A stretch of DNA of 57,156 nucleotides from Deltaproteobacteria bacterium (GTDB lineage Bacteria; Desulfobacterota; Syntrophia; Syntrophales; UBA8958): NCBI GenBank assembly GCA_029553375.1, contig JAKPCH010000048.1, positions 5,001 through 62,156 on the forward strand. Direction: 5' to 3'. Positions 1,640 through 45,530 of the stretch are shown here, piece after piece. How positions within the stretch are numbered: position 1 is the stretch's first letter; every line of letters begins with the position of its first letter. The notes under the pieces are model-generated. The model saw nothing but the letters and a program-made list of their open reading frames with translations, was not told where the DNA came from and made no database searches. The translations under genes and the position numbers were made by a program.

Positions 1640-3202
1640 CTAACGGGCGTAATCGGAGACCCTCGTCTCCCGAATGACGGTCACCTTGATCTGCCCCGGG
1701 TAGGTCATGTCGCTCTCGATCTTCTTCACGATATCCCGGCAGAGCATGACGGCGTCGTTGTCGGAGATCTTCTCGTTCTCGACGAGGATGCGGATCTCCC
1801 GTCCCGCCTGGATGGCGTAACACTTGTCGACGCCGCTGAAGGAATTGGCGATACTCTCCAACTCCTCGAGACGTTTGACGTAGCTCTCGAGCATCTCCCT
1901 TCGGGCCCCGGGGCGGGCCGCCGACAGGGTGTCCGCCGCCTGAACCAGGACGCCGAGGATCGTGTTCGTCCTCCCGTCGTCGTGGTGGGTGGCGATGGCC
2001 TGGACGATCCGGGGTGACTCGCCGAAACGGCGGGCGTATTCCGCCCCGATGGCCGCGTGGGTCCCTTCCACCTCGTGATCCACCGCCTTGCCGATATCGT
2101 GGAGGAGACCGGCCCTTTTCGCCTCCTTGACGTTCATGTTGAGCTCCGCCGCCATCATGCCCGTGAGGTGGGCCACCTCGATGGAGTGCTGGAGGACGTT
2201 CTGGGAAAAGCTCTTGCGGAACTTAAGGCTCCCCAACAGATACAGGAGCTCGGGGTGGATATCATGGACGCCCACGTCGAAGCTCGTCCTTTCCCCCGTC
2301 TCCCTGATGATGGCGTCTACCTCCGTCCGGACCTTCTTGACGATCTCCTCGATACGGCCGGGGTGGATGCGCCCGTCGGAGATGAGCCTCTCGAGGGAGA
2401 TCCGTGCCACCTCCCTCCTGACGGGGTCGAAGCTCGAAAGGACGACCGCCTCGGGCGTGTCGTCCACGATGAGATCGATACCCGTGGCGGCCTCGATGGC
2501 CCGGATGTTGCGGCCTTCCCGACCGATGATCCGCCCCTTCATCTCCTCGTTGGGGAGATTGACGACGGACACCGTGTTCTCCGCCACGTAGTCCCCGGCG
2601 TACCTTTGAATGGCATAGGCGATGATCTCCCGGGCCTTCTTGTCCGCCGTCCTCTTCGCCTCGTCCTCTATCTTCCTGATCGTCGTCGCCGCCTCGACGC
2701 GGGCCTCCGCCTCCAGAGAAGCGATGAGCATACCCTTGGCCTCCTCGGCCGTCATCCCCGCCAGTTGCTCCAATTTCTCGTGCTGTTCCTTGATGACGCG
2801 GTCCAGGACCTCTTGCCTCTCCTGGAGGGACTGCTCCCGGGCGGCCAGGGCCCTTTCCCTGCCCTCGAGGGCCGCCTCCTTCTGGGAGAGGGCGTCCAGC
2901 CTCTTCTCGAGGACCTCCTCCTTACCCCGGAGACGCCTGTCCAGGGCGTCGAGTTCCTGTTTCCTCTCCCTGGTGTCCCGCTCGAATTCCGTCTTGACCT
3001 TGAGGAGATTCTCCTTGGCCTGGAGGAGAGACTCCTTCTTGATGTTCTCCGCCTCCTTCTTGGCCTCCTCGACGATGCGCTGGGCGAGGGTCTCCGTCGT
3101 CGCCTGCCTCTTCCTCTCCAGGGACCGGTGGATGAGGAAACCGGCACCCACCCCGCACAGGACGGACAATATGATCGTTCCTATCAACACCGTTGTCGTC
3201 AA
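1640..3202 (-). CDS. rny: Ribonuclease Y
   Basis: Membrane-anchored endoribonuclease that starts mRNA decay; 520 residues, normal length. Order of parts: one N-terminal membrane segment (about residues 5-22), a long charged coiled coil (about 25-200), a KH RNA-binding domain ([15 protein letters not shown], about 225-240) and an HD phosphohydrolase domain with HSIEVAHL and LLHDIGK. The start is TTG at 3202, preceded by an AGGAGG Shine-Dalgarno about 9 bases upstream. Followed by the ymdB-like phosphoesterase and tyrS on the same strand; preceded by a candidate 6S RNA and zapA, an order common in deltaproteobacteria. Confidence 0.96.
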
Positions 3203-3332
3203 TTCCTGTCACCTCCTTATATATCAAAACACCACGGCTGCGCCCTCGGACGATGCCGTCGGGTGGTGGGACCTGCCGGGGTTGTGAGGGGGTGTGAGGA
3301 TGTCAGGGGGACGAAAGAACCCCCGCGAATGC

Positions 3333-3475
3333 CGTGTCAACCTCTTTTGTGAACCTGCCAGGAAAGTGGGCGCCTTTGCATCCGCTCCTTAGGACTCCTC
3401 TACCTCCCGTTCTCACCCGGTTCGGGCAGACATGCCCGGGGCGAACCGAAGAAAGGCCCCCGAAGAGGTACTGTT
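3333..3475 (-). ncRNA. ssrS: Candidate 6S RNA (ssrS)
   Basis: A non-coding 276-base gap separates zapA from rny. Read on the minus strand it can fold with a closing stem ACCTCTT (rc of 3463-3469) to AAGAGGT (rc of 3340-3346), and an inner strong stem-loop around GGTTCGCCCCGGGCATG...CCCGAACC (about 3415-3445). A G5/C5 hairpin (3306-3324) follows and may end the transcript. Location downstream of zapA is the conserved place for 6S RNA in many proteobacteria, and zapA-6S-rny is a known deltaproteobacterial order. The call rests on synteny and gross fold; ends are approximate and no covariance search was possible. Confidence 0.45.
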
Positions 3476-11619: not shown

Positions 11620-11653
11620 CGAACGGGGTGAGACAAGAAAAGGAGTGATCACC

Positions 11654-14600
11654 ATGAAGAAAAGTCGCCTTCATCTTTTCGCGTTTGCCTTCGCGATCAT
11701 CCTGGGGGTCCTCTTCTCGGCCGTCCCCGTCGCGGCGGCCCCGGTGGGCAAGGTTACGTCCCTGGAGGGGCGGATCGACATAACACCGGCGGGCGCCAAG
11801 GAGGCCGTGCCCGCGGCGGTGGGCACCACCGTGAACACCGGCGACATCATCCGGGCGAAAAGCAAATCCAAGGCCGAGGTGACCTTCACGGACGGGAACA
11901 TCCTCCGCGTCGGCGAGAACAGCCGGGTCCGCGTCACGAACTACAACCCCGAGGAGGGGCAGAAGAACTACTTCAACCTCTTCCGGGGAAAGACCCAGAC
12001 GGTGGTGAACAATCTCAAGAAGGGCTCCACCCTCGAGGTCCACACGCCGACGGCCATCTGCGGCGTCCGCGGCACCATCTTCGTGAGCATGTACATCAAC
12101 GGCCAGAGCAGTTTCGTCTTCTCCCGCGGCGCCGGTTACGGCTACAACATCAACCGGCCCGACCGGGTCGTGGAGATCCCCACGAAGGTCATGATGATCG
12201 TCCCCCGGCCCGACCGTCTCCCCCTCCTCCGCCCCGCCTCGGAAAGCGAGATCGACCAGCACCTGAAAGACACCACCCCCGCCAAGGAGGGAGAGAAGAA
12301 AGAGGAAGCGAAGGAAGAGGAAAAGAAACAGGCGGACAAGGGTGAGGCCAAGGAGGAGAAGCCGGCCAAGGAAGAGGCGAAAAAAGAGGAGAAGAAAGAA
12401 GAGGCCAAGAAGGAGGAGCCCGCCAAGACGGACCAGGGTCAGCAGGGGGCCAAGCAGGAACAGACGACCACCCCGCAGGCCACCGGCGCCGAAGGCCAGC
12501 AGCAACAACAGCAGACCGGCTCAACCACGGAAACAACGGCGACGTCTCCCGCCGCCCCTCCGCCCACGGATCCGGCCATGCTCGAGCAGCAGCTCGCCCA
12601 GCTTCAGCAGGAACAGACGACCCAGCAGCAACAACAACAAAAACAACAGGAACAGGTGATCGAACCCCAGAAGGACACGACGCCACCGACGATCACCTTT
12701 ACGTCCACGCCCCCCGCCCAGTCGGATGACGACAGCGCAACGATCGCCTACAGCGCCAACGAGAAGAGCGACTTCCAGTACCGGATCGACAACGGCCCCT
12801 GGCAGGCCGGCCCCACCTCGGCCACGGAGGGGAGCACCAAAATCGCGGATCTAACAGAGGGGGACCACACCTTCACCGTCAAGGCGGCCGACGCCCTCGG
12901 TAACACCTCGGAGAAGAGCTACAGCTGGAAGACGGACTACAGCACGGGTCCTGAGGTGACGATCACTCCCCAGTCCGCCGTCCCCGCCGGCAAGGGCGTC
13001 ACGGACGTCACGGTGAACCTCGCCAGCACAGATACCACCTACCGCTACAAGCTCGACGACGGGGCCTATCAGGAGACGACGGACGAGAAGATCACCCTGA
13101 CGGGTCTCGGTGCAGGCGACCACACCCTCAGTGTCTTCGGCAGGAACGACGCCGGCAAGAGGGGCAGGGAGACGCAGCAGGCCTTCCGCATCAACCGTTA
13201 CGACTCCTTGCCCGGTAAGATCTGGCTGTCGAACGACATCACCAGTCAAGAGGTGAAGGCCGATATCGCCGGCATCGCCGACGCCGACTGGGGGAGCTGG
13301 GCACTCCAGGCATCGGGCTCCGGCACGCCGACCTCTACCTGGAATTCCCACGCCGGCAGCAGTCACAGCGGAGATGATACTCAAACCTACTGGTTGATCC
13401 GCGCCGATGGCCAGGCCGCTGACGGAAGCATCACCGGTACCTCCACGGCGGATCTCCTCAAACTGGCCAAAGGCAGCGATGGCAAGACCCTCTGGAACGA
13501 TTCCTTCCTGGGTCGTACCAACGAACCCCAGCATGGTTCTGTTACGGGCACATACGGTAATTCCACCTGGAGTATCGAGGATAAGGGCACGGGCATCTAC
13601 ATTGAAGAGGCCCTCAAGTGGTACATCGAGACCCTGGCCAGCGAGTCGCCCGATTACTTCCGCCGGTGGAACAACACAGAGAAGAAGATGGATCGGGACC
13701 AGAACAGCAATCTCTATGGCCTTGTCGGCAGTACGGATGGTCCCTGGTCATCGCCTGCCTTCTTGGGCTTGGGTGGCTATAAGAACGACAACAACTGGCG
13801 TCTCTGGGTTGTGGATGTGGCTGGAGACGGCTCCGACGGCTCCCGTTTCCGGGGCGGCATAGGAGGAGTTTTATCCAGCGGCACCGCCACCGAGGACCGT
13901 TATCCCCTCGAGGGCCTGGGGCGGGTGATCTACATCCGTGAGGTCGATGGTAAATATATGACCGGATATCTCAACCTCGAGGACCTCGCCGGTGACGCCT
14001 ACGGAGCCATCGGCATGTGGCGTTTCACGGGCAGCCTTAAAGGTCCGGGGGACGAGGGGGAGACACAGTACAAACCCTCCGAGCTCGACGGCCATCTCGT
14101 CGAGTCCGCCCCCCTGAAGAGGACCATCGCGGCCCAAGGCGGATCACTTCAGGGCCGGGCCTGGACAAGGACGGTTCACCTGGAGGACCAGACGTGGAAG
14201 CTATACAGGAGTGAGATGGGGGGCACCTACAACGGGCCGCCTGTCGGTGTCAACACCGGAGGCATCGACATGAACAACGGGCGGGAGGTGAACTACTCCT
14301 TAGGGACGATCGACTTCCAAAAGTGGGAGGACGAGACGGGCCTGATCAAGGGCACGATGGAGAGTAAACAGCTGTCGTGGAAATACCAGGGGACCGCCAG
14401 TGGCAGCCTCATCGGCGACCGTAATGACTCCGGCGGATGGGAGGCCCTCGCCAGCGGCGTCCAAAGGTCGGAGAAACTTGCCTTCGCTTCTCTCATCGGC
14501 CAATGGGGCCAGGACGGCTCCATAAAGAGGCGGCCCCTGGTCTATTCCCGTCAGCCCATCTATACCCAGACAAAGGTGGCCGACGTGACGGCCCCCATAC

Positions 14601-17600
14601 GGATCGAGGTTTCTCCCGCCTCCGGGTATGAGAGCCATACCTGGATTGCCCCGTCGACGGGCGGCGACAAGACCCAGTACTTCCCCGTTTTCCCCAACAA
14701 CACGGGCCTGAAGACGTATGTCAAAACACCGTATCCCTCCGCCCGCTACGAAAAGGGCGACTCCTACGAGCGGATCCGTTACTTCCTCTTCCGAAAGGGG
14801 GACAACTACTTCAGCGTCAAGGCCCCCGGCGACACGGGCGGTTTTGACGTGACGGTTTACGACGCCGACAACAATAAAATCGACCAGCGCACCGTCTCCT
14901 CCCAGAGCGGCGTGTCATGGTACAACCTCTACCGTCTCGAGGTGCCTTCGGACCCGGCGGATCCGACCTCCTTGTGGTTGTATGTCGACGAGAGTGGCAA
15001 CTACACCGCCTTGGGCGACAGGCCCATCATCGATTACGAGGTCGTCACCGAAGACGGCGGCATCCAGGGGATCCTCGGGGGGACCCAGAGCCTCTTTGCG
15101 GGTGACGGCAAGGACATCCCCGTGCGCCTCATGGGTTCCTACACGGGCGGCCTCGAGTTCAACCGCACCTGGTCCCAGACCTTGGCTGCTTACGACAGTG
15201 ACAGCGCCCGCTATGTCACCTACGACCAGAACCCCGGGACCTATTTCGGCGTCCTGGGCGGCACCCTGAGGCCTGAGGCGGAAAAAACGGAGGGGGTCTT
15301 CCACGCCCTCATCATCGGCGCCGACGGCAAAGCGGGCCTCTTCCGCGGTTCCTTCGGCAAGGACGGGACGGGCGCCATCTACCCCCACCTCCTCATCCAG
15401 GAAGAGGGTCAGCCCGACAGGCGCCTCTGGGAGGCCGACGGCTCCCTCAGCCGCTACGACCTCGGCGTGGCCTCGGGGATCGACCCGGCGGACCTGACGG
15501 GGCCCTGGTTCCAGATTCAGGATGAACCGTCCGGCGACAGCTACGACTTCTGGGAGGGGGAGAACAGCTACCTCGGCCGCATCCACGCCTCCACTTGGGA
15601 TGCCTCACGGCAGATGCATGCCCACTCGGGAGGATTCCTCCTCGAGGGTCCTTCCTACCGGGACTCCATGTGGGCCCGCCAGGACTACTTTGACCTGTGG
15701 CACCTCGTAAAAGATGCGGGGGCGAACCTGGGGGTGTTCTCGTGGCGGAGCCTCGGGGCCTACACCCGGCAGAGCTCGGCCGACCGGTGGATCTTCGACG
15801 CCGAGTTCGAGGAGAGTCACAAGGGAAACAGCTCCTTCAGCGCCCATCTCTTCTCCTTCGGCACTTTCGGTGACGAGCCGAGCCTCTTGAAAGGCCGGGC
15901 CCTCGGCTACTTCGGTTCGGGCCAAGGCGGGCTGACGGCCATCGCTGCGGGTGACACCGTGGGGACCTACAACGAAGGCAGCGACGACCACTACCGCTAT
16001 GACACCTTCACGGCCGTGACGACGGGTACCTGGCTCAATACCCAAAAATACCTCGAGCTGATGGGTTCCGAGGCCGGGCGGGCGATCCTGGACGGCCTGG
16101 GCTATCCCACCCAGGAGGTCGCCCTCGACGCGGACTCCCGAGACCTGACGGGGGCGTTGGCCAGCAAGCCGGACCAGGCGGTCACGGTCAACGGCTTCCG
16201 CATCTTCTCGCCGAAAGACAACGACCTAATAAAAGTCTTTGCCTCCCAAGGCCTCACCTCGCAGGCGACCTATGCCACGGATGCCCTCTACCCCGTGACG
16301 GGCCAGAGCCCAGACTATCCCGTTTTCGGTGTCATGAGGAGTCAGTACAAGAATACGGAAGATTCACGCTGGCTTGGTTCCCTGGAAGGTTTCGGGGTGT
16401 TTAAAAAAGGTGACGGCACCATCTTCCAGGGCAATTTCAACGGCGTCGCGGCGGGCACCTACGGGACGGGCTTCTCCGGCACCGCCCAGGGCGAGGTCTT
16501 CGAATCGACCCTCCTCAGTCGCTTCGACACCCAGCTCAAATACTATCAATACGCGAGCGGCAACTGGAGTGTTGTAGAGACGGGAAAGATCGACGGTCTT
16601 ATGGGGTCATCCAACCCCACCATTTGGCGGGAGAACGGTTATTATCCTACCTCTTTGGACATCTCCATGTTCGGCGTTTGGCATGGAGGCGACAACCCCG
16701 TCCACAGGGGCCACATCTTCCGTACGGAGAGCTACCCCACCAACTACACCGACGGCACCACAACGACGACGACGGGCCACTCCTACTGGGGCTACCTGAC
16801 GGGCATTCACCAGGTCACGGACGGTACCCAGGACGGCATCGAGGCGCTCCTGACGGGGATTTTCCTGGACAAGGAGAAGAAGGTGGGCTTCGTGATGGGC
16901 CAGATCGGCGGCCCCGAGGCGTGGAGCGACCCATACGGCTGGGGTTTCGACTGGTCACGCCAGACCTTTGTGGCCTATCCCAAAGAAACGGGCACCCTCC
17001 TTACCGAGATCGCCTCCGCCACCACCGTGACGGCCCCGTCTCTCAAGGACAGCATCCTACAGACGGATTACACCTATCGCGGTGGTGTGATGGCGCCGTC
17101 CGAAGAGGGGGTCATCGGCCGCTTCTTTGACGCCAACAACCAGGTCGTCGGTGATCCCATCACCATGGCGGCCGTCGGCACGGCGACGGTGTCGACGGTA
17201 GACGACGAAAACATCAAGAACAAACTCGGGGTCTGGTCCACGGAGCTCTACGGTTACGGCGGCGGCCTCCCGACACACGACCTCTGGATCGGCATGGTTC
17301 AGACCCCCGCCTCCGACGAACCACCGACCAAGCTCACGGGGGCCAACATCTACGGCGAACCCTGGCAGAACGGCCGGGTCGCGGGCCATGTCCTGGGTCA
17401 CTGGGCGAGCCTGGAGGGTGCCTCTGGTATCACCTTCGGCAGACTCCTCGGGACCTTCGACCCGTCCAACTACACCTACCAGGCCGTCATGGCCGGGGGA
17501 TTCCTCGAGACGTCCCTCTACCTCTCCCTGGCCGTCAGCGCTGAAGGGCGACAGACCCTGAGGGACATCAACATCCCCTGCGTCCAGGTCGGCAATGTCA

Positions 17601-17977
17601 ACCTCGCCGGACAAAACGAGTCTCTGCAGGTAACGATGAATGACGTCAAGTTCTTCGCCTTCTCCACGGGCCAGACCCCCCACCTATGGGCGACGAACTC
17701 CGTCGCAGGCCAAGCCAAGGTAAGCAATCCGACAGGTGCGACCGTAGACTTGTCGGGCAACAGCGGGCAGCTTAGCGCCACCTTCACCATGAAGAACTGG
17801 GATACGAACAACAATAAGTGGCTTGGTTCCGTGACGAACGGCCAGGGCAGGATCGACACGCCTGTGATCCCCAACCCCAACCTCCAGAATCTCCGGTTCC
17901 GGGGCGCCGCGGCGGGCACGATCAACGGTAACAGCTTCAGCGGTACCGCCGCCGGCGTGGTCCACAAGGCCCAGTGA
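11654..17977 (+). CDS. Giant exported FecR-domain protein with repeated beta-rich C-terminal modules
   Basis: About 2,107 residues from ATG 11654 (AGGAG eight bases upstream; GTG 11645 is an alternative). Order: Sec signal peptide ending VAAA; FecR domain (about 35-150, GDIIRAKSKSKAEVTFTDG, LRVGENSRVRV); a Lys/Glu-rich low-complexity linker (about 205-260); a Gln/Thr-rich linker (about 260-340); two Ig-like units opening TPPTITFTSTP and PEVTITPQ; then about 1,600 residues of Trp/Gly/Tyr/Asp-rich beta modules. Two copies of WLGS...FxGxAAGT...FSGTAxG occur near residues 1570 and 2055-2107. There is no lipobox. It lies 34 bases after the barrel gene, so co-expression and export through that barrel are plausible. 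I do not recognise a characterised full-length homologue. Confidence 0.93.
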   Translation: MKKSRLHLFAFAFAIILGVLFSAVPVAAAPVGKVTSLEGRIDITPAGAKEAVPAAVGTTVNTGDIIRAKSKSKAEVTFTDGNILRVGENSRVRVTNYNPEEGQKNYFNLFRGKTQTVVNNLKKGSTLEVHTPTAICGVRGTIFVSMYINGQSSFVFSRGAGYGYNINRPDRVVEIPTKVMMIVPRPDRLPLLRPASESEIDQHLKDTTPAKEGEKKEEAKEEEKKQADKGEAKEEKPAKEEAKKEEKKEEAKKEEPAKTDQGQQGAKQEQTTTPQATGAEGQQQQQQTGSTTETTATSPAAPPPTDPAMLEQQLAQLQQEQTTQQQQQQKQQEQVIEPQKDTTPPTITFTSTPPAQSDDDSATIAYSANEKSDFQYRIDNGPWQAGPTSATEGSTKIADLTEGDHTFTVKAADALGNTSEKSYSWKTDYSTGPEVTITPQSAVPAGKGVTDVTVNLASTDTTYRYKLDDGAYQETTDEKITLTGLGAGDHTLSVFGRNDAGKRGRETQQAFRINRYDSLPGKIWLSNDITSQEVKADIAGIADADWGSWALQASGSGTPTSTWNSHAGSSHSGDDTQTYWLIRADGQAADGSITGTSTADLLKLAKGSDGKTLWNDSFLGRTNEPQHGSVTGTYGNSTWSIEDKGTGIYIEEALKWYIETLASESPDYFRRWNNTEKKMDRDQNSNLYGLVGSTDGPWSSPAFLGLGGYKNDNNWRLWVVDVAGDGSDGSRFRGGIGGVLSSGTATEDRYPLEGLGRVIYIREVDGKYMTGYLNLEDLAGDAYGAIGMWRFTGSLKGPGDEGETQYKPSELDGHLVESAPLKRTIAAQGGSLQGRAWTRTVHLEDQTWKLYRSEMGGTYNGPPVGVNTGGIDMNNGREVNYSLGTIDFQKWEDETGLIKGTMESKQLSWKYQGTASGSLIGDRNDSGGWEALASGVQRSEKLAFASLIGQWGQDGSIKRRPLVYSRQPIYTQTKVADVTAPIRIEVSPASGYESHTWIAPSTGGDKTQYFPVFPNNTGLKTYVKTPYPSARYEKGDSYERIRYFLFRKGDNYFSVKAPGDTGGFDVTVYDADNNKIDQRTVSSQSGVSWYNLYRLEVPSDPADPTSLWLYVDESGNYTALGDRPIIDYEVVTEDGGIQGILGGTQSLFAGDGKDIPVRLMGSYTGGLEFNRTWSQTLAAYDSDSARYVTYDQNPGTYFGVLGGTLRPEAEKTEGVFHALIIGADGKAGLFRGSFGKDGTGAIYPHLLIQEEGQPDRRLWEADGSLSRYDLGVASGIDPADLTGPWFQIQDEPSGDSYDFWEGENSYLGRIHASTWDASRQMHAHSGGFLLEGPSYRDSMWARQDYFDLWHLVKDAGANLGVFSWRSLGAYTRQSSADRWIFDAEFEESHKGNSSFSAHLFSFGTFGDEPSLLKGRALGYFGSGQGGLTAIAAGDTVGTYNEGSDDHYRYDTFTAVTTGTWLNTQKYLELMGSEAGRAILDGLGYPTQEVALDADSRDLTGALASKPDQAVTVNGFRIFSPKDNDLIKVFASQGLTSQATYATDALYPVTGQSPDYPVFGVMRSQYKNTEDSRWLGSLEGFGVFKKGDGTIFQGNFNGVAAGTYGTGFSGTAQGEVFESTLLSRFDTQLKYYQYASGNWSVVETGKIDGLMGSSNPTIWRENGYYPTSLDISMFGVWHGGDNPVHRGHIFRTESYPTNYTDGTTTTTTGHSYWGYLTGIHQVTDGTQDGIEALLTGIFLDKEKKVGFVMGQIGGPEAWSDPYGWGFDWSRQTFVAYPKETGTLLTEIASATTVTAPSLKDSILQTDYTYRGGVMAPSEEGVIGRFFDANNQVVGDPITMAAVGTATVSTVDDENIKNKLGVWSTELYGYGGGLPTHDLWIGMVQTPASDEPPTKLTGANIYGEPWQNGRVAGHVLGHWASLEGASGITFGRLLGTFDPSNYTYQAVMAGGFLETSLYLSLAVSAEGRQTLRDINIPCVQVGNVNLAGQNESLQVTMNDVKFFAFSTGQTPHLWATNSVAGQAKVSNPTGATVDLSGNSGQLSATFTMKNWDTNNNKWLGSVTNGQGRIDTPVIPNPNLQNLRFRGAAAGTINGNSFSGTAAGVVHKAQ

Positions 17978-18019
17978 CGAGGTGCTGGGGAAATTTTAGT
18001 TGTCACTATTATTAATAAT

Positions 18020-18062
18020 CACCCTGGCCCGCCGTCACCGACGAGGGGTCAGGGTGGTTCTA
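18020..18062 (+). terminator. Probable terminator after the giant FecR-domain gene
   Basis: CACCCTG (18020-18026) pairs with CAGGGTG (18050-18056), strengthened by CCC/GGG inside. Only a short T-rich tail (GTTCTAT) follows, so strength is uncertain. Confidence 0.5.
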
Positions 18063-18245
18063 TCGGGGATGAGAAAAAGATTAGTCACTAATCAAAGTTA
18101 AATCCTTGATATCAAAAGAAAAACGGCTTTGAGTCGCAACTATTCGTAATTATTTGCGATTTGTAAACAATCAATTTTGCTGAGTATTTTGGGGGAATAT
18201 GTCTTGATGAGGTTAATGGGATCTTGGCACCGGGAGGGGAGATAA
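18063..18245. other. AT-rich non-coding gap before the first Skp-like gene
   Basis: Markedly AT-richer than the flanking genes. It contains the small palindrome ATTAGTCACTAAT near 18081-18093 and ends with the GGGAGGGGAG Shine-Dalgarno of the next gene. It probably carries that gene's promoter, but no convincing -35/-10 pair was fixed. Confidence 0.4.
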
Positions 18246-18767
18246 ACGAATAGAGTATCAGTTTTTTTATGGATATTGATCGGGGCTGTTTTTTCCCTGA
18301 CCCCGGCCGTCGGCGGGGCGGCGGGGCCGCGGATCGGGGTGGTGGACGTCCAGCGGGTCCTCAAGGAGTCCCGGGAGGTCCAGAAGGTGCGGGACAACCT
18401 CCTCCAGGACATGAAGGCGAAGCGGGAGACCCTCGCCGCCAAGGAGAGGGAGGTAAGGAATAAGGAGGAGGAGTTCAGGAAGCTGCCCCCCAAGACCCCG
18501 GCGAAACAGCGGGCCGCCAAGGCGGACGAGCTGAAGAACGCCCTGCGGGATCTCCAGTACCTCCGTCAGGACCTCGAGGCGGAGTGGAAGAGGAAGGAGA
18601 ACGACGCCATGAGGACGATCCTGGGGGAGGTCCTCCAGCTGATCAGGAAATACGCCCGCGACGAAGGATACACGACCGTCCTGGACTCGTCGGCCGTCCT
18701 GGCCTCCGACGAGGGCGTGGACATCACCAACAGGATCATCAGGCTCTACGACGAAAGCAAGAGATGA
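18246..18767 (+). CDS. Skp/OmpH-family periplasmic chaperone, copy 1 (apparent ACG start)
   Basis: Holdase that keeps unfolded outer-membrane and exported proteins soluble in the periplasm. The mature part begins PRIGVVDVQRVLKES, the Skp/OmpH opening strand, followed by a long charged helical-hairpin arm (KVRDNLLQDMKAKRETLAAKE onward) and the closing EGVDITNRIIRLYDES. The frame opens right after a TAA (18243-18245). The first codon, ACG at 18246, has GGGAGGGGAG just upstream and gives NRVSVFLWILIGAVFSL, a proper signal peptide. The first standard start, TTG 18276, would cut that peptide in half and has no ribosome site. 173 residues from ACG. A paralogue follows 97 bases downstream. Confidence 0.88.
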   Translation, partial: TNRVSVFLWILIGAVFSLTPAVGGAAGPRIGVVDVQRVLKESREVQKVRDNLLQDMKAKRETLAAKEREVRNKEEEFRKLPPKTPAKQRAAKADELKNALRDLQYLRQDLEAEWKRKENDAMRTILGEVLQLIRKYARDEGYTTVLDSSAVLASDEGVDITNRIIRLYDESKR

Positions 18768-18864
18768 GGGGCAAACCCGACCCTTATCTCCTTGTCCCCT
18801 CCCCCTTTTTCTGCTACAAGGCAGGCGTCCCCAGAAAAAATACCCCCGGGAGGTAGTGAAGATC

Positions 18865-19407
18865 ATGCCCAGGCTCTCAGGTATCCTTTTCATCGCGGCC
18901 CTTTTCTCCCTTGTCCTCACCTCGGCCCACGCCGCCCCCCCCAGATCGGCGGCGGCGACGACGGGTGTCAAGATCGGGATCGTGGACATGCAGAAGGTCC
19001 TGCGGGAGGCCAAGGCGGCCAAGGCGGCCCGGGCGGCCTTCGAGAAGGAACTGGAGGCGAAGAGGATCCAGATCGCCAACAAGGAGAAAGAGGCCCGGGA
19101 CCTCGAGGGGGAGATCAACCGCCTCGACCCCACCGCCTCCCTCGAGGTCCGTCGTCAGAAGGCCGACAAGCTGAAGCACGTCATGAGGGAGCTCAACAAC
19201 CTCAAACAGGACACGGAAGAGGAATTGAAACGCAAGGAGATGGAGATGGCCCAGAAGATCCTCGGTGAGATCATGGCCGTGGTGCGCAACTACGCCAGGA
19301 ACGAGCGCCTCGTCGCCGTCTTCGAGCGCGGCGCCGTCATGGTCGCCGACGAGGCCATCGACATCACCGACCGGATCCTCAAGATCTACGACGGCCAGAA
19401 ACGCTGA
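18865..19407 (+). CDS. Skp/OmpH-family periplasmic chaperone, copy 2
   Basis: 180 residues from ATG 18865 (GGAGG eleven bases upstream; GTG 18856 is only two bases from that site). Signal peptide MPRLSGILFIAALFSLVLTSAHA, then VKIGIVDMQKVLREAKAAKAA, a long helical arm and the ending DITDRILKIYDGQKR. Same fold and ending as the preceding gene, so the two arose by duplication. bamA, lpxD and fabZ, the usual neighbours of skp, are not here; instead the pair follows a giant exported protein and its barrel, suggesting dedicated holdases. Confidence 0.92.
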   Translation: MPRLSGILFIAALFSLVLTSAHAAPPRSAAATTGVKIGIVDMQKVLREAKAAKAARAAFEKELEAKRIQIANKEKEARDLEGEINRLDPTASLEVRRQKADKLKHVMRELNNLKQDTEEELKRKEMEMAQKILGEIMAVVRNYARNERLVAVFERGAVMVADEAIDITDRILKIYDGQKR

Positions 19408-19414
19408 GGTACCC

Positions 19415-20191
19415 TCAGGGGAGCACCCGCTCCGCCTGGAGGGGGTAGACGAGGGTCTTGACCACGCCGGGGGGTTCCAGGAAGAAGACGATCATGAAGG
19501 GGACGGCGGCCCCGGCGTTCACCCGTTCGGCGTTGACGTCCGTGCCCTGGGGAACGGCCAGCTCCCGCAGGATCTGCTCCTCCGTCATGGTCTGGAGCTC
19601 TTCGTCCGAAAGAAGGTTCCCGCAGTAGGCCACCGCCTCCCTCACCCGCGTGTCCACGGCGTCGTAAAGCTCCGCCGCCACCTTGATCCTCGTGAGGGGG
19701 ACGTCCGCGGTGTTGACCGCCATCCCCTCGACGACGCGGATGGTGCCCATGACGGGGTTGTTCACGAGGCGCTGGCGGAGGTCCCTCACGACGACCGACG
19801 CCTTTTCCCCGGGAAGCTGCTTTTCACCGGAGACGGGGGTTTGGAGGGCCTTGAACCCCCTTAGGGCCTCCTCTACCAGGGGGGGGTTGAGAAAGGCCAC
19901 GGCCCCCGCGAAGAGGAACAGGGCCAGCAGTACCGCCGCCCCCACCCTCCAGGGCGAAAGACGCCTCTTAAGGGGCCCCTTCGCCTCGGGCAGGGGATCC
20001 CCGGACGGGGGAGGCCCTTCAGGGGCGGCCGGTCCTAGACCCTGCCGTCCCTCCGCCCCCGGAGGCGCCAAGGTCCGGTAGAAGACGTGGCGGCACCGAC
20101 TGCAGCGGAGCCAGATCCCCTCTCTGCCGCCTTCCACCGCCGTCACGTCGAAGCGGAACCTGGTGCCGCAGGACTCACAAGTGATGATCAT
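19415..20191 (-). CDS. Zinc-ribbon and DUF3426 membrane protein
   Basis: 258 residues. The N-terminus MIITCESCGTRFRFDV...WLRCSRCRHVFY is an MJ0042-type zinc ribbon (two CxxC pairs, residues about 5-36). A proline-rich linker follows, then a single membrane helix (VGAAVLLALFLFAGAVAF, about 86-103) and a DUF3426-type extracytoplasmic domain. Such proteins are widespread in proteobacteria, but their role is not established. Its stop faces the second Skp-like gene eight bases away, and hpt lies 24 bases upstream on the same strand, so it is probably cotranscribed with hpt. Confidence 0.85.
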   Translation of the reverse strand: MIITCESCGTRFRFDVTAVEGGREGIWLRCSRCRHVFYRTLAPPGAEGRQGLGPAAPEGPPPSGDPLPEAKGPLKRRLSPWRVGAAVLLALFLFAGAVAFLNPPLVEEALRGFKALQTPVSGEKQLPGEKASVVVRDLRQRLVNNPVMGTIRVVEGMAVNTADVPLTRIKVAAELYDAVDTRVREAVAYCGNLLSDEELQTMTEEQILRELAVPQGTDVNAERVNAGAAVPFMIVFFLEPPGVVKTLVYPLQAERVLP

Positions 20192-37798: not shown

Positions 37799-38941
37799 AT
37801 GAAAAAGATCTCGACCCTCCTGGGGGTCCTGCTGTTTGTGTCGACCCTCGCCGCTTTCGACGCCGCCGCCCAGGTGAGCTGCGTCGACGCAGAGGGGGAG
37901 GCCATCATCGCCAACAACGATCTCCCCTCGGCCCGTCTGGAGGCCGTCGCCAGGGCCAAATGGCACGCCATCGAAAAGACCGTGGGGGTGGATGTCAAGG
38001 CGGGGAGCCTCGTATCCAACTTCGCCATCGTCGAGGACGTCATGAAGACCCAGGTGGGGGGATCCGTCAAGAGCTTCACGAAGAGGTACGAAAAACAGAA
38101 AGACGGCACCTTGGTGGTGGGCATCAACGCCTGCGTGGAACCCAAAAAGGCCAGGGAGGCCATCGCCTCCGACCTCACCCTCAACAGCGGCATCGCCGTC
38201 TTCATCCCCGCCCGTAAACCGGGGAAGGGGGGCGGGGATGATGAGTACGAGGAAACGAACGTCCTTTCCGAGAATCTCATCGCCAAACTGAGGGAACAGA
38301 ACTATACCGTGGTGGACGTCGTCCCGACCCAGACCGTGGACGCCGCCGCCATCGAGAGGGCCGTCAGGGGGGGCAGCACCGTCGCCCTGCGGGGGATGAT
38401 GTACCGCTTCCTCTCGAGTGTCGTCATCATCGGCCGGACGGACTACACCATCTCCACCAAGAAGGGCGAGGACATCGGTTACGGCCTCTCCATGCCCTTC
38501 AACAACGTCACCGTCCGCCTCACCTACCGCATCGTGGCCCGCAACAACAAGACGGGCAACATGGAGATCCTCCATGCCGGCGCGGAACAGGGCCGCGGCC
38601 TGAGACCGAGCGTGGAGGACGCGGCCCACGAGGCCTTGAGAAACGTGGCGGAGAAGGTGACGCCGGTGATCCTAGATAAAGTCGCCGCCTATCTCCAGGG
38701 CAACGTGAAGAAGATCAGGGTGAAGGTGGAGGGGGTCACGGACCTCGACACGAACATGGAGGTCAAGGGGATCCTCCAGAACGTCGTTTGGGTGACGGAG
38801 GTGGAGGAGAAGGAACTGGGTTCCTTCCTCGTGAGCTACCCGGAAAACACCCTCTACCTGGCCAATTCTCTGCAGCAGCGGGGGGGGTTCACCTTGAAGA
38901 ACTTCACCCCTTATTCTTTGACCATGGTCTATCAAAAATAA
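37799..38941 (+). CDS. Exported protein with FlgT/LPP20-like N-terminal domain
   Basis: 380 residues from ATG 37799 (GGGGG tract upstream; GTG 37790 is alternative). Signal peptide MKKISTLLGVLLFVSTLAAFDAAA. Then VSCVDAEGEAIIANNDLPSARLEAVARAKWHAIEK and a V.sGSLVSNF-like stretch, the pattern of FlgT N-terminal / LPP20 domains, followed by two further alpha/beta regions (about 130-250 and 250-380). FlgT stabilises flagellar basal rings in Vibrio, but related domains occur outside flagella. Eleven bases before a CsgG-like lipoprotein, so the pair may assemble one envelope complex. No other flagellar genes nearby. Confidence 0.8.
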   Translation: MKKISTLLGVLLFVSTLAAFDAAAQVSCVDAEGEAIIANNDLPSARLEAVARAKWHAIEKTVGVDVKAGSLVSNFAIVEDVMKTQVGGSVKSFTKRYEKQKDGTLVVGINACVEPKKAREAIASDLTLNSGIAVFIPARKPGKGGGDDEYEETNVLSENLIAKLREQNYTVVDVVPTQTVDAAAIERAVRGGSTVALRGMMYRFLSSVVIIGRTDYTISTKKGEDIGYGLSMPFNNVTVRLTYRIVARNNKTGNMEILHAGAEQGRGLRPSVEDAAHEALRNVAEKVTPVILDKVAAYLQGNVKKIRVKVEGVTDLDTNMEVKGILQNVVWVTEVEEKELGSFLVSYPENTLYLANSLQQRGGFTLKNFTPYSLTMVYQK

Positions 38942-38951
38942 GGAGGTTCTC

Positions 38952-40142
38952 ATAAAAAGGTCTCTTCCCTTGTGCCTGATGGTCCTTTTCCTCATCGCCG
39001 GCTGCGCCACGGCCCCGAAGATCGATCTGACCACCTTCGTGCCCGACCGGACGCAGAAGATAAACATACCGCCCATCTGCAAGCCCAAGTACGACGCCCC
39101 CCTGCCCCTCGTCGCCGTGGCTAACTTCACCAACAACACCACCTTCGACTTCGCCAGCGTCGTCCAGAGCCAGGTCCAGGGATCCGGTGAAAGGACCGCC
39201 GTGGGCGGTGCCGCCGTGGGCGTCGCTCCCGGGGCGGCCGGCGTCGTGTGGGGGGCGAGGGAAAGGAGCCGTTTCCAGACGGACGCCCAGACGATCTCCC
39301 GCCAGGTCAACGCCCGCCTCTCGGAGAGCATCGAGGACGGGGTCACGGACGAGATCGTCAACATGGGGGGTGCCAAGGTCTACACCCGCAAGGAGATGGG
39401 CAAGATCTTCTCCGAGCAGAAGTTCCAGCAGTCCGGCATGGTGGACGACGCCACCCTGGTCAGCCTCGGGAGGCTCAGGGGCGTCAAGTACATCATCACC
39501 GGCTCGGTGAACAACGTGGACCTGAAATGGGTCAGCCATGAGTCGGCCCGCAAGGGCCTCACGAGGGGCGGGAGCGGCAGCTTCGCCCTCGACCTCATTG
39601 GGGTGGCCGTGGCCGCCGGTCTGGAAACCCAGGAGGGTTGGAACATCGGGACGGAACTGACCCTGAGGGTCCTGGACGTGGAGAGCGGCGAGGTCTTGTT
39701 CTCGAAGCGCATGACGGGGAAACACATCATCGGCAAGACCCCCTACCCCAATTACGACGCCCTCATCGGAGGGATCAAGAAGGCGGCGGGAAACAGTCTC
39801 CAGCAGGCCCGCCCCGAGTTGTCCAAGTATTTCCCCATCAAGGGCTACATCACCATGCTGAAACAGAGCCCCGACGGAAAGCAGAAGGCCGCCCGGGTCA
39901 GCATGGGGGAAAAGCAGGGGATCAAGGCCGGGAACGTGCTCTATGTCTATAATTTCGAGGAGGTCGAAGATCCCATGTCGGGCAAGAAGGAGTGCGACGT
40001 CCAGCGCCTCCCCGTGACCCTCGTCGTGTCGTCGGACCAGTTGCAACCCAACGCCTCCTGGGCCATGGTGGAGGCGCCGAGCCCCGCCCATCTCCAGATG
40101 ATCAAGGTCGGCCAGCTCGTGGAAAGGAAACCGTTGCCGTAA
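38952..40142 (+). CDS. CsgG-like outer-membrane lipoprotein (apparent AUA start)
   Basis: 396 residues from ATA 38952, which sits five bases after a perfect AGGAGG and gives MKRSLPLCLMVLFLIAGC, a normal lipoprotein signal with lipobox cysteine C18. The first usual start, TTG 38970, would remove both positive residues of the signal. Mature part resembles CsgG/curli-type secretion proteins: VAVANFTNNT near the start, VTDEIVNMGGAKVYTRKEMGKI, LRGVKYIITGSV, WNIGTELTLRVLDVESGEVLFSKRMTGK. Likely an outer-membrane-associated lipoprotein acting with the preceding gene; whether it forms a CsgG-type pore is unproven. Confidence 0.87.
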   Translation: MKRSLPLCLMVLFLIAGCATAPKIDLTTFVPDRTQKINIPPICKPKYDAPLPLVAVANFTNNTTFDFASVVQSQVQGSGERTAVGGAAVGVAPGAAGVVWGARERSRFQTDAQTISRQVNARLSESIEDGVTDEIVNMGGAKVYTRKEMGKIFSEQKFQQSGMVDDATLVSLGRLRGVKYIITGSVNNVDLKWVSHESARKGLTRGGSGSFALDLIGVAVAAGLETQEGWNIGTELTLRVLDVESGEVLFSKRMTGKHIIGKTPYPNYDALIGGIKKAAGNSLQQARPELSKYFPIKGYITMLKQSPDGKQKAARVSMGEKQGIKAGNVLYVYNFEEVEDPMSGKKECDVQRLPVTLVVSSDQLQPNASWAMVEAPSPAHLQMIKVGQLVERKPLP

Positions 40143-44693: not shown

Positions 44694-45206
44694 ATGGTTT
44701 CAGACGAGGCGATGATGACCCTGGCCCTTCGAGAGGCGGCCCGGGGTCTCGAGAGGGGTGAGGTGCCCGTGGGGGCCGTCCTGGTCAAAGACGGGAGGAT
44801 CCTGGCGCGGGCCCACAACGCCTGCCTGACCATGAACGACCCCACGGCCCACGCCGAGGTTCTGGCCCTCCGGGAGGGCGGCCGGATCCTGGGCAACTAC
44901 CGCCTCATGGACACGACCCTGTACGTGACCCTCGAGCCCTGCATCATGTGTACAGGTGCCCTCGTCCACGCCCGGGTCTCCCGCCTCGTTTACGGCGCCG
45001 CCGATCCCAAGGGGGGTGCCGTGGCATCCCTTCACCGCCTCCTGGCGGATGAGCGCCTCAACCATCGCGTCCTGGTCACGGCGGGTATCCTGGAGGGACC
45101 GTGCGGAGAAATTTTGAGTGGATTTTTCCGAAAAAAGAGGCTATCATCACCACTCCGTTCGGATCCAGAAGACGAACGAAGCGGAGAGATACCGAAGTGG
45201 TCGTAA
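44694..45206 (+). CDS. tadA: tRNA-specific adenosine deaminase
   Basis: 170 residues. Converts A34 to inosine in tRNA-Arg(ACG). Zinc-site motifs HAEVLAL (with catalytic Glu) and PCIMCTGALVHARV are complete; VPVGAVLV and HNACLTMNDPTAHAE also match. The last eight codons overlap the 5' half of the following tRNA-Ser gene, so the extreme C-terminal tail is probably non-essential. TTGACA at 44659 may be its -35. Confidence 0.96.
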   Translation: MVSDEAMMTLALREAARGLERGEVPVGAVLVKDGRILARAHNACLTMNDPTAHAEVLALREGGRILGNYRLMDTTLYVTLEPCIMCTGALVHARVSRLVYGAADPKGGAVASLHRLLADERLNHRVLVTAGILEGPCGEILSGFFRKKRLSSPLRSDPEDERSGEIPKWS

Positions 45207-45276
45207 CGGGATCGACTCGAAATCGATTTGGGGGCCAAAAGCTCTCACGGGGGTTCGAATCCCCCTCTCTCCGCCA
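45183..45276 (+). tRNA. tRNA-Ser(CGA)
   Basis: Acceptor GGAGAGA pairs with TCTCTCC; discriminator G then encoded CCA. Anticodon stem ATCGA/TCGAT encloses loop CTCGAAA, anticodon CGA at 45218-45220. The long variable arm (about 45228-45247) is typical of class II serine tRNA; T-loop GTTCGAATC present. Its first 24 bases overlap the end of tadA. Confidence 0.97.
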
Positions 45277-45290
45277 TTTTGGAAAATCCC

Positions 45291-45384
45291 GGAGAGATGC
45301 CTGAGAGGCCGAAAGGGCACGACTGGAAATCGTGTGTATGCCCTAAAAGGTGTACCGCGGGTTCGAATCCCGCTCTCTCCGCCA
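45291..45384 (+). tRNA. tRNA-Ser(GGA)
   Basis: Acceptor GGAGAGA/TCTCTCC, anticodon stem CACGA/TCGTG around CTGGAAA, anticodon GGA; long variable arm; GTTCGAATC T-loop; encoded CCA. Fourteen bases after the previous serine tRNA, sharing acceptor and T-arm sequence, so a tandem duplicate with changed anticodon. Confidence 0.97.
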
Positions 45385-45428: not shown

Positions 45429-45530
45429 GATAGCCGGGTCCCGTGCAACGAAGGATTGTGAACCCCGTCAGGTCCGGAAGGAAGCAGCGGTAGCAATAAC
45501 CGACGTGTGCTGCGGGGTAGCCTGGCTATT
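45429..45530 (+). ncRNA. ffs: Signal recognition particle RNA, small bacterial type
   Basis: The conserved Ffh-binding tip GTCAGGTCCGGAAGGAAGCAGC (reported here as position 45467-45488) with its GGAA tetraloop is exact. The ends pair: ATAGCC near 45430 with GGCTAT near 45524-45529. About 100 bases, the 4.5S-like form lacking an Alu domain. Lies between tRNA-Ser and dnaX, as in many bacteria. Confidence 0.96.

What the first reader, a model, noticed from the sequence alone, without database searches (positions are those of the whole stretch)
18232..18290. ACG as apparent start codon of a Skp-like chaperone
The frame is closed by TAA at 18243-18245, and the very next codon is ACG, with GGGAGGGGAG in place as ribosome site. 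Using ACG restores NRVSVFLWILIGAVFSL, a full signal peptide; TTG 18276 would leave an incomplete one with no ribosome site. ACG is a known rare near-cognate start. A second case occurs at 38952, also for an exported protein, so it may be a biological feature (weak starts limiting expression) and not chance.
Basis: partly seen in the sequence, partly recalled or inferred. Interest (0 to 1): 0.6.

Follow-up and report, generated by a model that had tools for sequence, protein, structure and literature searches.

The report
Skp-like gene with ACG start codon
One of two neighbouring Skp-like chaperone genes in an uncultured bacterium seems to start at the very weak codon ACG, most likely a private, perhaps accidental feature of a fast-evolving spare copy; following it up showed that another gene, hflX, starts at an equally odd codon in nearly every related genome examined.

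Summary
Observation confirmed: TAA 18243-18245, then ACG 18246-18248, with a strong Shine-Dalgarno (SD) match at 18232-18241. In the sequence as given, ACG is the only start that gives a complete signal peptide of normal length; TTG 18276 leaves 18 codons before the conserved motif, where 28 homologues have 25-40. The gene is the fast-evolving member of a tandem pair of OmpH/Skp-family paralogues (end branch 0.71, neighbour 0.19). No orthologue keeps the ACG and the genus holds one genome, so a base-call error cannot be excluded.

The 'second case' at 38952 is ATA, not ACG; 8 of 8 relatives have ATG at exactly that codon. I found no trend of weak starts for exported proteins.

The survey for other cases led outside the window: hflX (ribosome-splitting GTPase) starts with ATC/ATT/ATA in 69 of 71 examined genomes of the order and 27 of 40 from the rest of the phylum. 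infC, the textbook case, gave ATA/ATC in 30 of 30 loci. A conserved, perhaps IF3-gated start of hflX is the novel lead; the ACG itself is a modest, unproven new member of a known kind.

The parts
18207..18245 (+). possible 12-codon leader ORF (ATG ... TAA) whose stop abuts the ACG
   Evidence: sequence; SD energy -8.4 before its ATG; no sign of conservation
18232..18241 (+). Shine-Dalgarno match GGGAGGGGAG
   Evidence: energy -10.8 at the ACG
18246..18248 (+). ACG, apparent start codon
18246..18323 (+). signal peptide if started at ACG (end approximate, judged by eye)
   Evidence: translation; homologue comparison
18246..18767 (+). Skp/OmpH-family paralogue 1 (the ACG gene)
   Evidence: Pfam PF03938 E 4.4e-26; NCBIfam Skp model below its cut-off
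18276..18278 (+). TTG, first canonical in-frame start; no SD, truncated signal peptide
18865..19407 (+). Skp/OmpH-family paralogue 2, ATG start with SD -11.2
   Evidence: closer than paralogue 1 to the relatives' single copy in 14 of 14 loci
11645..17977 (+). 2110-aa FecR/Ig-like protein upstream of the pair; C-terminal part conserved upstream of the Skp-like gene in 5 of 14 relative loci
38940..38946 (+). SD AAGGAGG of the second case
38952..40142 (+).
   Evidence: ATG at the aligned codon in 8 of 8 relatives

Best explanation
The gene at 18246-18767 is the fast-evolving extra member of a tandem pair of Skp/OmpH-family periplasmic chaperones. Translation most likely starts, weakly, at ACG 18246: a strong SD places the 30S subunit there and the initiator tRNA pairs with two of the three bases, giving fMet-NRVSVFLW..., which is exported through its signal peptide. 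The likeliest origin is a start-codon change tolerated because a normal paralogue begins 97 bases downstream, so little of this copy is needed. Shown: sequence, SD, open frame, family, tandem pair, long branch, and that the signal peptide is complete only from ACG. Inferred: initiation at ACG, weak expression, export, and relaxed need as the cause.
For: Strong SD at normal spacing. Start 28 codons before the conserved motif, inside the 25-40 of 28 homologues; TTG gives 18 and no K/R in the n-region. SD sits 32 nt before a TGG codon, 37 nt in four orthologues. No rescue in other frames. Intact OmpH domain. Longest end branch in the tree, 0.71 against median 0.16. The lineage does use non-ATG/GTG/TTG starts in infC and hflX. 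No frameshift in 99 conserved genes of this assembly.
Against: No orthologue has ACG; the genus holds one genome. The SD reaches a level that about 3-5% of ordinary positions reach. The conserved odd starts of the lineage are ATH, not ACG. Substitution errors in the assembly are not bounded.
Confidence: 0.5

Rival explanations
1. Base-call error or minority allele in a metagenome-like assembly of 96 contigs: the real codon is ATG, or the TAA before it is wrong and translation starts at ATG 18207.
For: Private to one genome; any single substitution in ATG yields a near-cognate codon; the in-frame ATG 18207 has SD -8.4.
Against: No frameshift-like break in 99 conserved genes, 34,576 aligned residues; the two in-frame stops seen are, by their coordinates, a natural stop and an antisense ORF. 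This bounds indels better than substitutions.
Confidence: 0.25
2. A dying duplicate: the start codon was lost and the gene is hardly translated, or only from TTG 18276 as a non-exported fragment.
For: Fast-evolving copy next to a normal paralogue; TTG is the first canonical start.
Against: The frame and the OmpH domain are intact and the SD is strong; so any decay is recent.
Confidence: 0.15
3. Regulated start: ribosomes that finish the 12-codon leader at TAA 18243 re-initiate at the abutting ACG, and IF3 level sets the output.
For: Leader ATG with SD -8.4 and its stop against the ACG. In E. coli re-initiation falls when IF3 is raised (abstract of PMC2268962). IF3 gating of a natural odd start is documented for sigR GTC (passages of PMC5472188).
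Against: No such leader seen in orthologues (by eye); a chance ATG upstream is not rare; no conservation to test.
Confidence: 0.1

Closest known systems
infC (IF3) with ATT/ATC/ATA start
   Same: non-canonical start behind a strong SD; in this order infC starts with ATA or ATC in 30 of 30 loci read
   Different: infC start is conserved and self-regulating (known, PMC5472188 passages); the ACG is private, has a mismatch in the second base, and the gene is no translation factor
sigR GTC start in Streptomyces (PMC5472188, passages)
   Same: a single gene with a start outside ATG/GTG/TTG, not a translation factor
   Different: GTC, shown by experiment and repressed by IF3; here ACG and no experiment
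Skp/OmpH periplasmic chaperones
   Same: OmpH domain over residues 29-166, signal peptide from ACG
   Different: extra tandem copy beside a FecR/Ig giant protein, below the NCBIfam Skp cut-off (35.8 of 237 bits); a canonical-type copy lies on contig C50

Membership tests
Skp/OmpH family (Pfam PF03938) | OmpH domain above the curated cut-off | tested here: met
   92.2 bits, cut-off 32.4
Skp equivalog (NCBIfam NF008047) | score above the equivalog cut-off | tested here: not met
   35.8 bits, cut-off 237; so 'Skp-like', not Skp
Skp/OmpH family (Pfam PF03938) | N-terminal signal peptide | tested here: inconclusive
   complete by length and charge only if started at ACG; no signal-peptide predictor was run
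Skp/OmpH family (Pfam PF03938) | trimeric chaperone that holds outer-membrane proteins | not testable with these tools
   needs bench work
genes with a near-cognate start codon | SD at working distance and no canonical start that gives the full conserved N-terminus | tested here: met
genes with a near-cognate start codon | odd codon kept, or ATG at the aligned codon, in orthologues | tested here: inconclusive
   first codons cannot be aligned at 31-47% identity; by contrast the ATA of 38952 aligns with ATG in 8 of 8
genes with a near-cognate start codon | initiation with fMet, and repression by IF3 | not testable with these tools
   needs N-terminomics or reporters

The most novel reading that the evidence does not exclude
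Odd start codons are a used control layer in this lineage: infC and hflX carry conserved ATH starts, so IF3 may gate both itself and the ribosome-splitting GTPase HflX, tying ribosome splitting to the supply of free subunits. The ATA of the CsgG-like lipoprotein and the ACG of the Skp paralogue would be later, private additions to that IF3-gated set, the ACG perhaps reached by re-initiation from a 12-codon leader. For hflX alone I hold the odd start at about 0.85 and IF3 gating at about 0.45; the probability given is for the whole statement, ACG included.
Probability: 0.12. Interest if true: 0.75.

Novelty: new member of a known kind. Interest (0 to 1): 0.42.

Why it matters
If real, the ACG would be a natural bacterial ACG start in a gene whose next-door paralogue has a normal one, a tidy comparison of weak and strong starts. 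Of more weight is the by-product: a start codon of the class that IF3 discriminates against, conserved in hflX across an order and common in its phylum. That would be a second translation-related gene with an infC-like start and makes a simple question testable: does IF3 set how much HflX the cell makes? It also means that gene finders limited to ATG, GTG and TTG will misplace the HflX N-terminus in these genomes.

Tried and rejected
Frame rescue by an indel in the T7 run (18261-18267): rejected, neither other frame has a start. TTG 18276 as the main start: rejected on SD and length. RNA element in the leader: no Rfam match there, and the stretch folds less stably than its shuffles.

Genome-wide trend: a first gene survey picked many antisense ORFs and was replaced: 586,364 bases of 2,401,540, 506 genes, 488 with a 5' end; 13 lacked an acceptable canonical start. 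Of the 13, two are taken as odd starts (the ACG here; hflX ATC); one ATC candidate, a PAS-domain gene on L063, was rejected because orthologues code on upstream; ten were left as gene-call artefacts or undecided, judged by eye only. The CsgG-like ATA is not among the 13 because a downstream ATG without SD passed the filter, so the survey undercounts. Against relative G001 (807,406 and 400,000 bases): 190 reciprocal pairs, 135 after dropping antisense or overlapping ones, 129 with both 5' ends; 122 had some canonical start in both (the CsgG pair passes there too), 7 did not, none of them an ACG case. The ACG gene itself is in no pair.

Named relatives of the ACG gene in genome contigs: one distant locus. 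Literature: searches; among the listed papers I saw none that reports a bacterial ACG start in its own gene or an odd start of hflX. I saw listings only, except passages of PMC5472188, PMC10618245 (irrelevant), PMC13245402 and PMC9845219 and the abstract of PMC2268962. The paper that measured initiation from all 64 codons in E. coli is not held; that ACG is far weaker than GTG or TTG there is my recollection.

Full report
What is there. The frame is closed by TAA 18243-18245, the next codon is ACG 18246-18248, and GGGAGGGGAG stands at 18232-18241. From ACG the frame runs 173 codons to the stop ending at 18767. The protein is an OmpH/Skp-family member (Pfam PF03938, E 4.4e-26), though far below the NCBIfam cut-off for Skp proper (35.8 of 237 bits).

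Is ACG the start? I scored each candidate by duplex energy with the 16S tail: ACG -10.8; TTG 18276 -0.9; ATA 18273 +0.8; ATG 18269, out of frame, -2.4. Among 19,774 ordinary codons in 5' regions of this genome 4.8% reach -10 and 2.7% reach -11, so the SD alone is suggestive, not proof. Length is the stronger argument. In 28 homologues (18 like this gene, 10 of the canonical kind) the best canonical start (25 ATG, 3 GTG) lies 25-40 codons before the conserved [KR]-[IVL]-G motif and brings 1-5 K/R in the first residues; ACG gives 28 codons, TTG 18 and no K or R. My choice of start there used SD, codon and a weak preference for about 27 codons, so it is not wholly independent. In four orthologues GGAGG ends 37 nt before a conserved TGG codon; here 32 nt. 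Against: the first codons cannot be aligned base by base at 31-47% identity, and no second genome of the genus is held, so neither 'ATG became ACG' nor its age can be shown.

What gene is it? Paralogue 2 (18865-19407, ATG, SD -11.2) begins after a gap of 97 bases. In 14 relative loci searched, the Skp-like gene is closer to paralogue 2 than to the ACG copy in all 14, and I saw one copy per locus, though flanks are short. In 5 of the 14 the C-terminal part of the 2110-aa FecR/Ig protein lies upstream, and in 7 of the 14 a relative of the ORF at 19265 lies downstream, so the place is conserved. In a 26-row tree the ACG copy has the longest end branch, 0.71, against a median of 0.16 and 0.19 for paralogue 2; paralogue 2 groups with G001, and the place of the ACG copy is unsure. 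It is the fast-evolving extra copy, whether a duplicate of this lineage or an older one lost elsewhere. A third copy, of the canonical kind, lies on contig C50.

The second case. 38952 is ATA, not ACG. SD is -13.4. The protein is a CsgG-domain lipoprotein. In 8 of 8 relatives whose 5' end I read (5, 3) the aligned codon is ATG, 18 codons up to and including the lipobox Cys in each, as here. ATA stands exactly where ATG stands elsewhere: a private change or an error, not a family trait.

Is there a pattern of weak starts for exported proteins? In 586,364 sampled bases (488 genes with a 5' end) and 129 orthologue pairs with G001 I found no third exported protein with an odd start; the survey undercounts, as told under Tried and rejected. 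The assembly shows no frameshift-like break in 99 conserved genes and 34,576 aligned residues, so gross errors are rare; substitution errors are not well bounded.

What the survey did find. One gene without a canonical start, on contig C7 (L038 1686-3341), is hflX (TIGR03156, E 8.9e-132). Its ATC is not private. In the order, 31 of 31 orthologues have ATC (24), ATT (4) or ATA (3) at the aligned codon. In 40 further genomes of the order 36 have ATH there, 2 have ATA one codon upstream, 1 has GTG and 1 has ATG one codon on. Together 69 of 71 examined, out of 118 order genomes with a strong match. Of 40 genomes from the rest of the phylum, picked by me from the listed matches for spread over families, 26 have ATH at the aligned codon and 1 has ATT one codon on; 5 have ATG and 2 TTG at the aligned codon, 5 have ATG within two codons, and 1 is unclear (333 of 394 phylum genomes had a match). 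SD energies before the ATH are mostly between -5 and -13, and many have a stop within ten codons upstream with no canonical start between. Against: some have an in-frame canonical codon upstream with a fair SD (for instance G094, G089, G090 at codon -20, -7.4; G026 and G399).

Controls. The same reading of infC, the textbook odd start, gave ATA in 28 and ATC in 2 of 30 loci read (40 of 41 genomes matched), and ATA in this genome. As negative controls the 8 CsgG-like and 28 Skp-like genes of relatives all read as canonical. So hflX carries an infC-like start conserved across the order. [quoted passage not shown] Three searches of the paper library for hflX with start-codon terms listed nothing that, from title and abstract start, reports this.

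How it bears on the ACG. It shows that initiation outside ATG/GTG/TTG is used in this lineage, which makes a weak start less implausible. But the conserved class keeps A-T in the first two bases, and ACG does not. I hold the ACG start at 0.5, error at 0.25, decay at 0.15 and regulated re-initiation at 0.1.

Scores. The ACG alone I would put near 0.25, the hflX observation near 0.75; the overall figure is a compromise weighted to the finding given.

Noticed in passing
L038 (G000:C7) 1686-3341 +; orthologues L136-L142, L152-L255: hflX has a non-canonical ATC/ATT/ATA start behind an SD in 69 of 71 examined genomes of the order and 27 of 40 of the rest of the phylum; an infC-like, perhaps IF3-gated start that I found in no listed paper.
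   Followed up: yes
L263-L293 (infC loci), G000:C74:17150-17350: infC starts with ATA (28) or ATC (2) in 30 of 30 loci read of the order, and ATA in this genome, directly behind GGAGGTG-type SDs.
   Followed up: yes
window 38952-40142: CsgG-domain lipoprotein with apparent ATA start; ATG at the same codon in 8 of 8 relatives. Base-call error or private odd start.
   Followed up: partly
window 11645-19864: A giant FecR/Ig-like protein, Skp-like chaperone gene(s) and a further ORF form a locus kept in part in relatives (5 and 7 of 14 loci); perhaps a chaperone dedicated to the giant exported protein.
   Followed up: partly
L006, L007, L010, L025 (orthologue 5' ends): Relatives of the Skp-like gene show GGAGGA then ATC/ATA/ATA/ATG directly followed by GTG AAA: the codon before GTG may be a second, odd start.
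   Followed up: no
G000 contig C50, 74998-76024 of the joined stretch: A conserved gene with no start in its frame in either genome and a TGA at the break; looks like prfB with its programmed frameshift (recalled, not tested).
   Followed up: no
window 45183-45273, 45291-45381, 45432-45530: Two 91-nt tRNA genes in tandem followed by the small SRP RNA.
   Followed up: no
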